Positions 5,752 to 25,072 of a stretch of 64,000 nt of DNA are shown one piece after another (within the stretch, counting starts at the first letter, position 1; every line of letters starts with the position of its first letter). The notes under the pieces are model-generated. The model worked only from the letters and a program-made list of their open reading frames with translations. It was not told the DNA's origin and did not search any database. Location: NCBI GenBank assembly GCA_903923905.1, contig CAIXZH010000101.1, positions 62,001-126,000 on the forward strand. Direction: 5' to 3'. Origin of the DNA: an uncultured Bacteroidia bacterium (GTDB lineage: Bacteria; Bacteroidota; Bacteroidia; Bacteroidales; Prolixibacteraceae). A program made the translations under genes and the position numbers.

Positions 5752-5801
5752 CCGTCCAATAATGGACCTGACCATTCAACCTTTTTATAATTAAATGCCT
5801 T

Positions 5802-5838
5802 GCGCTCCTCTTTTGTAAATTACTCAAAAGAGGAGCGC
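5802..5838 (+). terminator. Hairpin terminator of the susCD unit
   Basis: A perfect 14-bp stem (GCGCTCCTCTTTTG pairing with CAAAAGAGGAGCGC) around a 9-nt loop lies about 50 bp after the susD stop. The downstream bases are only moderately T-rich (CCTGGTTTTG), so it may act as a terminator, a transcript-end stabiliser, or both. Confidence 0.7.
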
Positions 5839-6049
5839 CCTGGTTTTGCAATCAACAGAAATTAAGATGATTAAAAAATCATCTTTGCTGATGTTGTTCG
5901 ACTGCAAAATGCAGACTAAAGATTCGCTGGTAATTTCGGCCTGCTTTTCAGTTTCTGCTATCAATGAAGTTAATAGTTGAATGTTTCGGAGATTGGTCTC
6001 TGAATAGGGGTGCTGAGATAGTAATTTTATAAATCAATAGACTTTATTT

Positions 6050-6083
6050 TTTGCCTTAATCCAAGGAGATTTTTCTACATTTG
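6050..6083 (+). promoter_or_regulatory. Predicted promoter for dnaX
   Basis: The -7 element TACATTTG (6076-6083) matches the Bacteroidota consensus TAnnTTTG. It is preceded 22 bp upstream by TTTG (6050-6053) at the -33 position. The predicted start is near 6090, giving a leader of roughly 155 nt. Confidence 0.55.
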
Positions 6084-6246
6084 CAAAACAGAAATGGCAA
6101 AGAGCAAAGAATACAGCCTGCACCTATAAATAGGGTGGAAAATGCACTATAATTTGAATTGTGTATGTTCTTTGCACTTCATTTTTATAAATTATTGAAT
6201 ATCAATATTATTAATATTTGACTCGCAAATCCGCCTTGTAAGTTTT

Positions 6247-7371
6247 ATGGAAAACTATATCGTTTCTGCACGAAAATACCGCCCTGATACATTTGGTTCA
6301 GTAGTGGGTCAGCCTTCGATTACTTCGACCCTGAAAAATGCGATCCGAAGCAACCATCTTGCTCATGCTTATCTTTTTTGTGGTCCCCGGGGTGTGGGTA
6401 AAACCACTTCAGCCCGTATTTTTGCCAAAACTATTAATTGTCTGAATCTTGATGACCATACAGAACCATGTAATCGTTGCGAATCGTGTTTGTCTTTCTC
6501 CGAAAATCGCTCTTACAATATTCATGAGCTCGATGCTGCTTCCAATAATTCAGTGGATGATATCCGTTCTTTGGTTGATAAAGTGAGAATTCCGCCTCAA
6601 ATCGGTAAATACAGCGTCTATATTATCGATGAGGTTCATATGTTATCCCAGGCTGCTTTCAACGCGTTTTTAAAAACACTGGAAGAACCTCCGGGACATG
6701 CTATCTTTATCCTGGCAACTACCGAGAAACACAAAATCCTGCCAACTATTCTTTCGCGTTGTCAAATCTACGATTTCAACAGGATCACCATTCCTGACAT
6801 TGAAAAACACCTTTTGGAAGTTGCTCAAAAAGAGCACATTTTTGCAGAACCTGAAGCTCTGAATGTCATTGCTCAGAAAGCTGACGGTGCCATGCGCGAC
6901 GCACTTTCAATTTTTGATCAGGTCGTTAGTTTCTGTGGCGCAAACGTTACTTACAAAGACACTATTGCCAATCTGAATGTACTCGATTATGATTACTATT
7001 TTAAATTAACAGATTGTTTCCAGACGGGTGATATTCCGGGTACATTAATGATATTCAGTGAGATATTGGACAAAGGGTTCAATGCTCATCATTTCATCAT
7101 GGGCCTTGGTCAGCATTTTCGCGACCTTTTGATCTGTAAAGATGCTGTTACAGTTCAATTACTTGAAGTAGGTGGCGAGATTCGTGAAAGGTATAAAAAA
7201 CAGGCAGCACATTGTTCTGTTAATTTCCTGATCGGTGCACTTCAATTGACTGCTGATTGCGATATCCAGTATAAATCATCCTCCAATAAACGGTTCCTGG
7301 TCGAATTGACACTGGTCAGAATTGATCAGTTGGAAGAGTTGTTAAAAAAAAAACAATTGACGACGCCATAG
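6247..7371 (+). CDS. dnaX: DNA polymerase III subunit gamma/tau, N-terminal ATPase part (gamma-length product)
   Basis: Clamp-loader ATPase of the replicative polymerase. Visible motifs are Walker A GPRGVGKT (46-53), a zinc-binding set Cys65/75/78/81, Walker B YIIDEVH (125-131), FLKTLEEPP, and the arginine-finger SRC (170-172). Domain III follows. The frame stops at 7371 just after a run of ten A (7344-7353), giving 374 residues, about the length of a gamma-type product. Bacteroidota DnaX proteins are usually single chains near 600 residues. Here the missing C terminus continues in the -1 frame without a stop (next entry). Either the A10 run drives ribosomal frameshifting or transcriptional slippage to make gamma and tau from one gene, or an indel or assembly error broke the frame. 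Confidence 0.93.
   Translation: MENYIVSARKYRPDTFGSVVGQPSITSTLKNAIRSNHLAHAYLFCGPRGVGKTTSARIFAKTINCLNLDDHTEPCNRCESCLSFSENRSYNIHELDAASNNSVDDIRSLVDKVRIPPQIGKYSVYIIDEVHMLSQAAFNAFLKTLEEPPGHAIFILATTEKHKILPTILSRCQIYDFNRITIPDIEKHLLEVAQKEHIFAEPEALNVIAQKADGAMRDALSIFDQVVSFCGANVTYKDTIANLNVLDYDYYFKLTDCFQTGDIPGTLMIFSEILDKGFNAHHFIMGLGQHFRDLLICKDAVTVQLLEVGGEIRERYKKQAAHCSVNFLIGALQLTADCDIQYKSSSNKRFLVELTLVRIDQLEELLKKKQLTTP
7344..7353 (+). promoter_or_regulatory. A10 slippery run joining dnaX gamma and tau frames
   Basis: Ten consecutive A follow TTGTT. In the zero frame they read Leu-Lys-Lys-Lys-Gln and reach TAG at 7369-7371. One base back they read into a frame open to 8015. A purine-rich GGAAGAG (7332-7338) lies upstream at a distance that could act as an internal Shine-Dalgarno stimulator. 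No strong downstream stem-loop was seen. Comparable A-runs produce gamma and tau by ribosomal frameshift in Escherichia coli and by polymerase slippage in Thermus thermophilus. Confidence 0.6.
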
Positions 7372-8015
7372 CCACCTTATCGCTGTTACCCATCTTTGCT
7401 AAGATGGATACAGATAAGAAGGTCGGTTATTCAGATCCTGCTAGTTTAGATTTTCCCAATCCACCCCGATCAACATTGGTAAACAGTTCTGTAAATGAGA
7501 GACCTGTAGCCCGAAAGATAATAAATAGGGGAGCCTTTTCTACTCCATCTATCCTGGATGCCTTAAAAGATGACCCAAAATCTGAAAAAACTGATCGGGT
7601 TGCTCAGGAGGAGGGAGTCCAGTATTCAGGAAAGGTGGCGGTGAAAATTTTTACTGAGACCGAACTAATTGAAGCCTGGAGGAGTTTTGTAAATACCATT
7701 GATGCCCCCCAACTAAAATCGGCGCTCAGCGCCCGGGAACCCAGTTTAAACAATCATTGGAAAATCGGCTATGAACTTGATACAGAGCTGCAATTTAATC
7801 GTCTTACCCTTGACCTGAAACCAAAATTGCAGAGCTATCTACGCCACAGATTTGAAAACGAAGCAATTGAAATTCATTTTAAAGTATCTGAAGGAACCAG
7901 TATTCAATCGGGTATTCCATACACTGATGAGGAGAGATGGAATTTGCTCGTAACCAAATATCCTGCTCTGGCAACGTTAAAGTCAAAATTTGGTTTAGAT
8001 TTTGAGCATTATTAA
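7350..8015 (+). CDS. dnaX: DnaX C-terminal (tau-specific) region in the -1 frame
   Basis: C-terminal part of DNA polymerase III tau. After a -1 shift in the A10 run the frame reads K-T-I-D-D-A-I-A-T-L-S-L-L-P-I-F-A-K and runs uninterrupted to the stop at 8013-8015, so the complete tau would be about 589 residues. The first ATG in this frame is at 7404 (203 residues), but no ribosome-binding signal supports an independent gene. A poorly conserved linker is followed by a folded segment (about the last 120 residues: TETELIEAWRSFVNTI, LSAREPSL, LQSYLRHRFENEAIEIHFKV, YPALATLKSKFGLDFEHY) that resembles the C-terminal end of Bacteroidota DnaX proteins. A separate gene is much less likely than an out-of-frame extension. 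Confidence 0.8.
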   Translation, partial: KTIDDAIATLSLLPIFAKMDTDKKVGYSDPASLDFPNPPRSTLVNSSVNERPVARKIINRGAFSTPSILDALKDDPKSEKTDRVAQEEGVQYSGKVAVKIFTETELIEAWRSFVNTIDAPQLKSALSAREPSLNNHWKIGYELDTELQFNRLTLDLKPKLQSYLRHRFENEAIEIHFKVSEGTSIQSGIPYTDEERWNLLVTKYPALATLKSKFGLDFEHY

Positions 8016-8034
8016 GTTGTAGTGATTATTTTTG
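8001..8034 (+). promoter_or_regulatory. Predicted promoter for icd, bracketed by an inverted repeat
   Basis: TTTG (8001-8004) and TATTTTTG (8027-8034, TAnnTTTG) are 22 bp apart, the Bacteroidota layout. The -7 box lies inside an 8-bp inverted repeat, TTAAGTTG (8012-8019) and CAACTTAA (8041-8048), which could be an operator or just chance in A/T-rich DNA. Confidence 0.5.
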
Positions 8035-8093
8035 CACCATCAACTTAAATCGAAAAAATAATTTATAATTAATTTAAATATAAAATCTTTTCA

Positions 8094-9323
8094 ATGCAAA
8101 AAATTAAAGTACTGAATCCGGTAGTGGAACTCGATGGGGATGAGATGACCCGAATCATCTGGAAAATGATCAGGGAGCAATTGATCCTTCCTTTTCTGGA
8201 CATTGACATTAAATATTATGATCTTGGGATTGAACACCGTGATGCTACAGATGATCAGGTGACTATAGATGCTGCTTATGCCATTAAAAAATACAAGGTG
8301 GGCATCAAATGTGCAACCATTACCCCTGACGAAGCCCGGATGACTGAGTTTGGACTGAAGAAAATGTACAAATCACCTAATGGAACTATCCGAAATATTC
8401 TGGATGGAACAATCTTCAGGGAACCGATCGTGGTCCAAAATGTTCCGAGACTCATACCACAATGGACAGCTCCGATTGTCATTGGCCGTCATGCTTTTGG
8501 CGATCAGTATCGTGCTACCGACATTGTGGTTGATCGTCCTGGAAAATTAACGATGACCTTCATCCCTGATGATGGCACCGGTGCAGAGGAACACGATGTG
8601 TATCATTTTGCAGGTCCCGGAGTCGCACTCTCGATGTACAATACAGAAGCCTCAATCCGCGGTTTTGCCCATAGTTGCTTTAAAATGGCCCTGACTAAAA
8701 AATGGCCACTCTACCTCTCCACAAAAAACACAATTCTGAAAAAGTACGACGGCTTCTTCAAGGATATTTTTGAGGAGATCTTCCAATATGATTATAAAGA
8801 TCAGTTTAAAGCTGCAGGTATTACCTATGAACACCGTCTGATTGATGACATGGTGGCCTCAGCCTTGAAATGGAATGGCAACTTCATTTGGGCATGTAAA
8901 AACTATGATGGTGATGTTCAATCTGATACTGTAGCCCAGGGTTTTGGCTCTCTGGGTTTAATGACCTCTGTTTTAATGACTCCCGATGGGGATGTTATGG
9001 AAGCTGAGGCAGCTCACGGTACAGTAACCCGCCATTACAGGGAATACCAGAAGGGACGCCCAACTTCGACCAACCCTATTGCATCGATTTATGCATGGAC
9101 CCGTGGACTCGCTTTTCGCGGGAAATTGGATAACAACCAGCCGTTGATTGATTTTGCACTGTTGCTTGAAAATGTTTGTATCGATACCGTTGAGGCTGGG
9201 AAAATGACCAAAGATTTAGCCCTCTCTATCTACGGTGAGAATTTAAAACCTGAACATTATTTAACCACTGAACTATTTATGGCCGAATTGTCCAGGCTTA
9301 TCAATCAAAGAATGGGAAATTAA
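8094..9323 (+). CDS. icd: NADP-dependent isocitrate dehydrogenase (homodimeric type II)
   Basis: Oxidatively decarboxylates isocitrate to 2-oxoglutarate with NADP in the TCA cycle. The 409-residue length and the opening [13 protein letters not shown] place it in the eukaryote-like homodimeric NADP-IDH family, not the E. coli Icd family. Conserved segments include [13 protein letters not shown], the FGDQYRATD region, the catalytic [24 protein letters not shown] segment and [16 protein letters not shown]. It stands alone with its own promoter. Its product feeds the korAB-encoded 2-oxoacid:ferredoxin oxidoreductase elsewhere in this window. Confidence 0.96.
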
Positions 9324-23869: not shown

Positions 23870-25072
23870 ATGACCAATAGATCTGATTCAATAATTCCGG
23901 TTGTTGAAAACGACCGGCCGAACAAGGAGAAATTATTTGGTCTTGATTTTCTGAGAGCCCTGGCTATCATCATGGTGCTTTTCTTTCATACCTTAGTCCT
24001 TTTCCCTCATCCAGAGTGGTTGTCTTATGTTGCAAAGTTTGGATGGATAGGAGTGGACCTTTTCTTTGCTTTAAGCGGATTCCTGATTGCTTCCCAATTG
24101 TTTGCCAAAATTGTTGAGGACAAAAAAATCTCATTCCGTGACTTCTTCATCAAACGCTTTTTCCGGATTGTACCGGCATATCTAACGGTACTTTTTCTTT
24201 ATCTGAGTTTCCCTGCCTTGCGTGAGCATGGAACACCGGCTCCATACTGGAAATTCCTGACCTTTACCCAGAACCTGGGGCTTGATCTTAGATCTCAAAG
24301 TGCTTTTTCGCATGCCTGGTCCCTTTGTGTGGAAGAACAATTTTATTTGTTTTTTCCGATCATATTGATTGTTCTTGTTTATTTCAATGCCGTAAGAAAA
24401 GGATTTATAGTCCTGATATCCTTATTCTTACTTGGGTTTGTTGCCAGACTTTATGCCTGGAATGTGTTGGTTTTCCCGTTTAACGGCACCACTCTTTTTG
24501 GAGTTTACTGGCAGGAGTGGATATATTATCCCACTTACGCCCGTTTAGATGGGTTACTGGTAGGTATATCCATTGCGGGTATATTTCAATTTAAACCTAT
24601 GATTAGGGTGCTTTTGAGGAGGCATGGTAACTTGATGCTGGTTATTGGGGTCCTTGTTTTAATTGCAGCTTATATTGTCTGTTCGGATGAGAGGTCCTTT
24701 AGCCTCTGCATGTATGGGTTCCCACTGGTTGATATTGGATGTGGCTTTTTAGTTTTAGGTGCTGTAAGTCCATCCAGTTTTATTTATAAATACAATTCCC
24801 TTTTTTTTTCCTCCATCGCCATGCTTTCATATTCAATCTACCTTATTCATAAAATAACGATCCATGTAACACAGGAACAGCTGTTTAAACTTGATATTCC
24901 AAAGGAAAGCAATCTGATGATGCTGATTAGTCTGCTCATGACAATTATAGCTGCCTATATGTTGCACTACATGATAGAAAAACCGTTTATGAAATTCAGG
25001 ATTCAACTATTGAAACCCGGATTACTAAAACCAGTTCCTTTGGTTTCGTCCAAAGAGAAAGATATTGACTGA
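23870..25072 (+). CDS. Membrane acyltransferase (acyltransferase_3/OafA family)
   Basis: Integral inner-membrane protein, 400 residues with about ten membrane segments, of the family that O-acylates surface sugars. Family hallmarks are LDFLRALAIIMVLFFH (residues about 26-41, with the R-x10-H motif) and HAWSLCVEEQFYLFFP (about 141-156). The acceptor is probably an exported polysaccharide or lipid sugar but cannot be named. The MFS gene begins 33 bp after its stop, so the two may form an operon. No glycosyltransferase or capsule gene is nearby. Confidence 0.88.
   Translation: MTNRSDSIIPVVENDRPNKEKLFGLDFLRALAIIMVLFFHTLVLFPHPEWLSYVAKFGWIGVDLFFALSGFLIASQLFAKIVEDKKISFRDFFIKRFFRIVPAYLTVLFLYLSFPALREHGTPAPYWKFLTFTQNLGLDLRSQSAFSHAWSLCVEEQFYLFFPIILIVLVYFNAVRKGFIVLISLFLLGFVARLYAWNVLVFPFNGTTLFGVYWQEWIYYPTYARLDGLLVGISIAGIFQFKPMIRVLLRRHGNLMLVIGVLVLIAAYIVCSDERSFSLCMYGFPLVDIGCGFLVLGAVSPSSFIYKYNSLFFSSIAMLSYSIYLIHKITIHVTQEQLFKLDIPKESNLMMLISLLMTIIAAYMLHYMIEKPFMKFRIQLLKPGLLKPVPLVSSKEKDID

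What the first reader, a model, noticed from the sequence alone, without database searches (positions are those of the whole stretch)
6247..8015. dnaX is split by a coding shift at an A10 run, possibly programmed gamma/tau production
Seen: the dnaX frame stops at 7371, 16 nt after ten A (7344-7353). The -1 frame is open from the A-run to 8015 and encodes what looks like the normal C terminus of Bacteroidota DnaX. Known: E. coli makes gamma by -1 ribosomal frameshift at A-rich slippery codons, and Thermus thermophilus by RNA-polymerase slippage on A9. Bacteroidota DnaX is usually one continuous frame. Inference: this lineage either makes a short zero-frame gamma (374 aa) and a shifted tau (about 589 aa), the reverse of E. 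coli polarity, or the homopolymer length is a sequencing error.
Basis: partly seen in the sequence, partly recalled or inferred. Interest (0 to 1): 0.75.

Follow-up and report, generated by a model that had tools for sequence, protein, structure and literature searches.

The report
Replication gene read two ways
A bacterial replication gene (dnaX) is interrupted at a run of ten A's in a way its relatives have kept, most likely so that slippage on the run yields a short and a long protein; a second housekeeping gene shows the same arrangement.

Summary
In detail: dnaX (6247-7371) stops 16 nt after an A10 run (7344-7353), and the -1 frame carries the DnaX C terminus to 8015. It is not a sequencing error: 16 dnaX genes found in 18 same-genus genomes and 52 further same-family genes keep the run; 65 of these 68 are split, and the 3 continuous ones carry A11. 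Of 323 junctions sampled across the phylum, 222 have a run of A9 or longer (mode A10), split or continuous. In 199 of 216 usable cases BOTH non-tau frames stop within 25 nt (random points about 22%). In the genus, third codon bases are fixed where they build these two stops. This fits Thermus-like RNA-polymerase slippage better than -1 ribosomal frameshifting: all run phases occur, at least eight splits need the other direction, no common hairpin appears, and the genome has two tRNA-Lys genes. Two-ORF dnaX was described by Antonov et al. 2013 (PMC3711429), so dnaX here is a new member of a known kind. Apparently unreported: coaBC in the same family carries the same design (run in 39 of 44 junctions, both stops in 38 of 39). 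No transcript or protein data were available.

The parts
6247..7371 (+). dnaX zero-frame ORF: predicted gamma (374 aa)
7344..7353 (+). A10 run, proposed slippage site; A10 in 15 and T+A9 in 1 of 16 genus genes
7358..7360 (+). TGA in the third frame (reached with one A fewer or two A more); 16 of 16 in the genus
7369..7371 (+). TAG, zero-frame stop ending gamma; 16 of 16 in the genus
7353..8015 (+). -1 frame tail: tau C-terminal part, 220 residues before the stop, under purifying selection in the genus

Best explanation
Programmed transcriptional slippage. RNA polymerase slips on the A10 run and makes dnaX mRNAs with different numbers of A. Unslipped A10 messages (and those changed by multiples of three) give gamma, which ends at TAG 7371. 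Messages with one extra A (or two fewer) join the -1 frame and give a 589-residue tau with the C-terminal tail (in E. coli tau the corresponding region binds polymerase and helicase: recalled, not tested). Messages with one A fewer or two more stop at TGA 7358-7360 and again give a gamma-like protein. One gene thus supplies both clamp-loader forms, and which product sits in the DNA's zero frame depends on a single A. Shown by sequence: run, frames, both stops, their conservation, the A10/A11 difference between kin. Inferred: that slippage occurs, its ratio, and what each product does.
For: Run kept in 16 of 16 genus and 68 of 68 genus+family genes, 65 split. Longest run per junction peaks at A10 (153 of 323), against one A9-or-longer run in the 288 kb directly upstream of the anchor, mostly coding, in 263 genes. 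Both non-tau frames stop within 25 nt in 95 of 105 continuous and 104 of 111 split genes with a run; random tail points of the same genes 0.21-0.23 (180 observed, 42.8 expected of 194); points 50-74 nt past the anchor in no-run continuous genes of the order census 0.104. In the genus the second codon after the run is ATT/CTT/GTT (T third, making TGA) and the sixth ATA/TTA/GTA (A third, making TAG) in 16 of 16 although the residues vary; in like contexts elsewhere in these genes T third is 0.383 and A third 0.169. Tail dN/dS median 0.175 over 74 of 120 usable pairs. Three family genes (L050, L199, L204) are continuous with A11 before the TAGCTGA that follows A10 in split kin. tRNA-Lys UUU and CUU are both present. 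coaBC in the same family shows the same design.
Against: No transcript or protein data. A10 also contains the shifty heptamer A_AAA_AAA, so ribosomal slippage could add to or replace it. SD-like tetramers lie close upstream in 25% of 222 genes versus 11% at random coding points. The window's downstream 87 nt fold unusually well (z -3.04), as in 1 of the other 15 genus genes; mean z is -1.07 in the genus (2 of 16 below -2) and -0.75 in the family (8 of 52), versus -0.21 for other tail pieces (6 of 64). Seventeen of 216 genes lack one close off-frame stop. The tau tails also hold 6 runs of A9-A10 in 140 kb. Many dnaX lack the run (57 of 110 in the order census are continuous without it). Related sequences are not independent.
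Confidence: 0.78

Rival explanations
1. Programmed -1 ribosomal frameshifting on A_AAA_AAA: the mRNA is uniform and a share of ribosomes slips back one base into the tau frame.
For: A10 contains the heptamer in frame; most splits place tau at -1; SD-like excess upstream; stable local fold in the window and somewhat lower folding scores in the genus and family than in other tail pieces.
Against: The stop in the third frame is unnecessary for it yet conserved. At least eight splits with a run (L063, L078, L134, L207, L217, L220, L221, L223) put tau at +1. All three run phases occur. Predicted folds differ from species to species; 60-nt downstream folds are near shuffles (mean z -0.35 and -0.33). 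Two tRNA-Lys genes (argument in PMC5009743 section 21).
Confidence: 0.17
2. Sequencing or assembly error in the homopolymer; the gene is really one frame.
For: Homopolymers are error-prone; this is a 119-contig assembly.
Against: 65 of 68 genus+family assemblies are split at the same place, five of them listed with one contig; both off-frame stops are conserved.
Confidence: 0.01
3. Pseudogene, or two separate genes with the C-terminal part started internally.
For: An ATG lies in the tail frame at 7404.
Against: It is the only match over the DnaX family cut-off in the genome; tail dN/dS 0.175; the distance from the run to the first tail-frame ATG ranges from 5 to 336 codons over 65 split genes, so no ATG start is conserved (GTG and TTG were not tested for dnaX).
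Confidence: 0.04

Closest known systems
Two-ORF dnaX of Antonov et al. 2013 (PMC3711429; abstract and passages seen)
   Same: -1 frame change at DNA level, poly-A at the junction (nine of 17 genes with A10), recoding needed for tau, transcriptional realignment proposed.
   Different: 17 genes in 12 genera there; here a family-wide state, with the second off-frame stop, A10/A11 switching and continuous run-bearing genes added. Its supplement was not read.
Thermus thermophilus dnaX, slippage on A9 (PMC1088944 passages and PMC5009743 section 21; the original paper was not held)
   Same: Long A run at the gamma/tau boundary with nearby stops in both other frames.
   Different: Thermus tau is in the zero frame; here gamma is. 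Slippage was shown for Thermus, only inferred here.
E. coli dnaX -1 ribosomal frameshift (passages of PMC5009743 and PMC3711429)
   Same: Two products from one gene around an A-rich site.
   Different: E. coli uses A_AAA_AAG, an SD-like element and a stem-loop, makes gamma by the shift, and has one tRNA-Lys.

Membership tests
Two-ORF dnaX (Antonov 2013) | gamma part and tau tail in two ORFs with a -1 shift | tested here: met
Two-ORF dnaX (Antonov 2013) | poly-A run at the junction | tested here: met
   A10
Two-ORF dnaX (Antonov 2013) | tau actually produced by recoding | not testable with these tools
   needs RNA or protein
Thermus-type slippage dnaX | A run of 9 or more at the gamma/tau boundary | tested here: met
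Thermus-type slippage dnaX | close stops in both non-tau frames | tested here: met
   TGA 7358-7360 and TAG 7369-7371
Thermus-type slippage dnaX | tau in the zero frame of the DNA | tested here: not met
   window gene is split; 3 of 68 genus and family genes are continuous
Thermus-type slippage dnaX | mRNA heterogeneous in A number | not testable with these tools
   no transcripts
E. coli-type -1 ribosomal frameshift dnaX | slippery A_AAA_AAG | tested here: not met
   A10 followed by C
E. coli-type -1 ribosomal frameshift dnaX | upstream SD-like stimulator | tested here: inconclusive
   25% versus 11% at random coding points
E. coli-type -1 ribosomal frameshift dnaX | conserved downstream stem-loop | tested here: not met
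   2 of 16 genus z below -2 and predicted folds differ, though mean z (-1.07) is below that of other tail pieces (-0.21)
E. coli-type -1 ribosomal frameshift dnaX | gamma made by the shift | tested here: not met
   gamma is the zero frame

The most novel reading that the evidence does not exclude
Much of the Bacteroidota phylum uses poly-A transcriptional slippage as a general, phase-indifferent device at domain boundaries of housekeeping genes: an A9-A12 run plus a stop in each of the two unwanted frames. It operates in at least dnaX (gamma/tau) and coaBC (decarboxylase alone versus decarboxylase-synthetase). Because slippage spreads messages over all three frames, the DNA phase drifts nearly neutrally, so the same gene looks broken in one species and intact in its sister.
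Probability: 0.6. Interest if true: 0.75.

Novelty: new member of a known kind. Interest (0 to 1): 0.6.

Why it matters
Annotation that calls such dnaX or coaBC genes frameshifted or pseudogenes would be wrong for a whole family. The A10/A11 switch is a natural experiment: if slippage sets the gamma:tau ratio, it should be similar in A10 and A11 species. It also offers a second housekeeping gene, coaBC, in which to test what a programmed short product does.

Tried and rejected
A common downstream hairpin: strong in the window, but predicted folds differ across the genus and no Rfam family matches 5800-8200. Folding scores in genus and family are nonetheless somewhat below other tail pieces, so a minor ribosomal contribution is not excluded. 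Sixty-nt downstream folds are near mononucleotide shuffles (mean z -0.35 and -0.33); a first version of that control, was faulty and is not used. A third A11 site between a GH3-like and a beta-lactamase-like domain of an 891-aa ORF (L359) looked similar, but of 30 family loci my linker patterns placed four (L464, L478, L482, L484), and among these only the own gene had a run of nine or more: not established. Tail against solved structures: one match, E 0.071, not credible. coaBC in the order: 25 junctions placed from 28 loci, 9 with a run of A9 or longer, at varying places, 8 of the 9 with both stops within 25 nt: weaker than in the family.

Limits: the phylum and named samples were chosen partly for splits or similarity and give no frequencies. 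The order census (119 genomes, one per family code except two for the window's family) had 111 with a hit, 110 analysed. Two loci (L064, L190) could not be anchored and one duplicate (L084 = L012) was dropped. The FastTree counts of state changes (30 split/continuous, 46 run/no run, 322 rows; shuffled means 72.5 and 80.5) rest on one short protein and are rough. On checking I lowered slippage from 0.80 to 0.78 and raised the ribosomal rival from 0.15 to 0.17, because the fold comparison had been told too one-sidedly.

Full report
Observation. The A10 run, the stop 16 nt later and the open -1 frame are as described. The N part is DnaX and matches solved gamma/tau subunits; the -1 tail matches the end of the same DnaX profile. 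Upstream lie SusC/SusD-like ORFs, downstream ORFs that look like isocitrate dehydrogenase, ferritin and SecA (names are my reading of the translations).

Not an error. In 18 same-genus genomes a dnaX was found in 16 (the two misses are 64 and 68% complete). All 16 have A10 (15) or T+A9 (1), the zero-frame TAG, and a -1 tail ending like GLDFEHY. The family draw held 60 genomes, 57 with a hit, five of them from the genus set; the other 52 junctions were read too. Genus plus family give 68 distinct genes: 68 with a run of A9-A11, 65 split, 3 continuous. The three continuous genes have A11 before TAGCTGA, the word that follows A10 in many split kin. Five genomes listed with one contig are split. 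The family is probably Prolixibacteraceae: an inference from the named Sunxiuqinia record L085, which has the same junction type.

Wider survey. Over 323 distinct junctions from the genus, family, order, named and phylum samples, 222 have a run of A9 or longer: 113 split, 105 continuous, 4 unclear; 101 have none: 96 continuous, 2 split, 3 unclear. The longest A run per junction is bimodal, with peaks at A4 (36) and A10 (153). In the order census (110 of 111 hits analysed) 52 have the run (18 split, 2 unclear, 32 continuous), 57 are continuous without it and 1 is split without it (L216). Runs occur even where the upstream dnaX sequence is 60-64% GC.

The decisive pattern. A -1 ribosomal shift needs one stop besides the tau frame. 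Transcriptional slippage, which adds or removes A's, needs a stop in both other frames, as described for Thermus (PMC5009743 section 21; PMC1088944 passages). Both are there: 95 of 105 continuous and 104 of 111 split genes stop in both non-tau frames within 25 nt (the 4 unclear and 2 splits with an early tau-frame stop left out). Controls give 0.21-0.23 at random tail points (180 observed versus 42.8 expected of 194) and 0.104 at a similar place in no-run genes. In the order census alone it is 30 of 32 and 14 of 17. Seventeen of 216 lack one of the two close stops.

Codon evidence. In the genus the codon before the conserved Asp is ATT, CTT or GTT (12, 3, 1) and the codon before the second Ala is ATA, TTA or GTA (8, 7, 1): the residue changes, the third base does not, and that base completes TGA in one unwanted frame and TAG in the other. 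Later codons vary at third positions. In similar contexts elsewhere in these genes the fractions are 0.383 and 0.169. The 16 species are related, so this is not 16 independent trials.

Mechanism. All three phases of the run, at least eight splits that need +1 rather than -1, the A10/A11 switch, two lysine tRNAs and the lack of a common hairpin favour RNA-polymerase slippage. Against it stand the SD-like excess (25 versus 11%), the window's stable fold, the somewhat lower folding scores in genus and family (mean z -1.07 and -0.75 versus -0.21), and the ribosomal slippery heptamer within A10. A mixture is possible. I put slippage at 0.78.

Same device in coaBC. One of the 17 distinct A10-or-longer sites of the genome joins the CoaC and CoaB ORFs. 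TIGR00521 hits are in two pieces in 16 of 17 genus genomes with a hit; in one of these, G007, the pieces lie on different contigs, one of which starts inside the run (L446), so its frame state is unknown. I read 44 junctions: all 17 of the genus and 27 of 30 family loci (39 family genomes had hits; loci were given for 30; three could not be placed). Of these 39 have a run of nine or more A and 38 of 39 have both off-frame stops within 25 nt, versus 0.24 at random points. One genus member (L434) has A11 and is continuous where sisters have A10 and are split. Of 25 run-bearing genes classed split, 18 have no ATG, GTG or TTG between the preceding in-frame stop and the CoaB TAGPT motif; leaving out L446 it is 17 of 24, so 7 do have a candidate start. 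Three small-genome members lost the run but remain split (L443, L449, L450). I found no report of this: the main text of PMC3711429 holds none of the words coaBC, pantothen- or coenzyme A, and searches for coaBC with slippage and phosphopantothenoylcysteine with frameshifting gave nothing relevant in the listings or passages seen.

Novelty. Antonov et al. 2013 already reported dnaX genes in which recoding is needed for tau, nine of 17 with A10, and proposed transcriptional realignment (abstract and passages). Atkins et al. 2016 restate the reversed type (section 21 read). Searches pairing dnaX with Bacteroidetes, Prolixibacteraceae or realignment, and slippage with Bacteroidetes, listed no survey of the phylum, within an open-licence library only. 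So dnaX here is a new member of a known kind; the phase switching across the phylum and coaBC go beyond what I saw in print.

Noticed in passing
L345 1501-1510 (own genome, C77:26175-26184); L404-L463: coaBC split or continuous at a run of nine to eleven A between CoaC and CoaB, with stops in both unwanted frames in 38 of 39 run-bearing genus and family junctions.
   Followed up: yes
L359 1501-1511 (own genome, C116): A11 at the boundary of a GH3-like and a beta-lactamase-like domain in one 891-aa ORF; conservation not established.
   Followed up: partly
L443, L449, L450: Same-genus members with genomes of about 2.8-2.9 Mb lack the coaBC run but stay split; a TTG in the CoaB frame near the CoaC stop may serve as a start.
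   Followed up: partly
L216: A dnaX that is split without any A run (1.8 Mb genome); other mechanism, error or decay not resolved.
   Followed up: no
window 24801-24809, minus strand: The only other run of nine A in the window; not examined.
   Followed up: no
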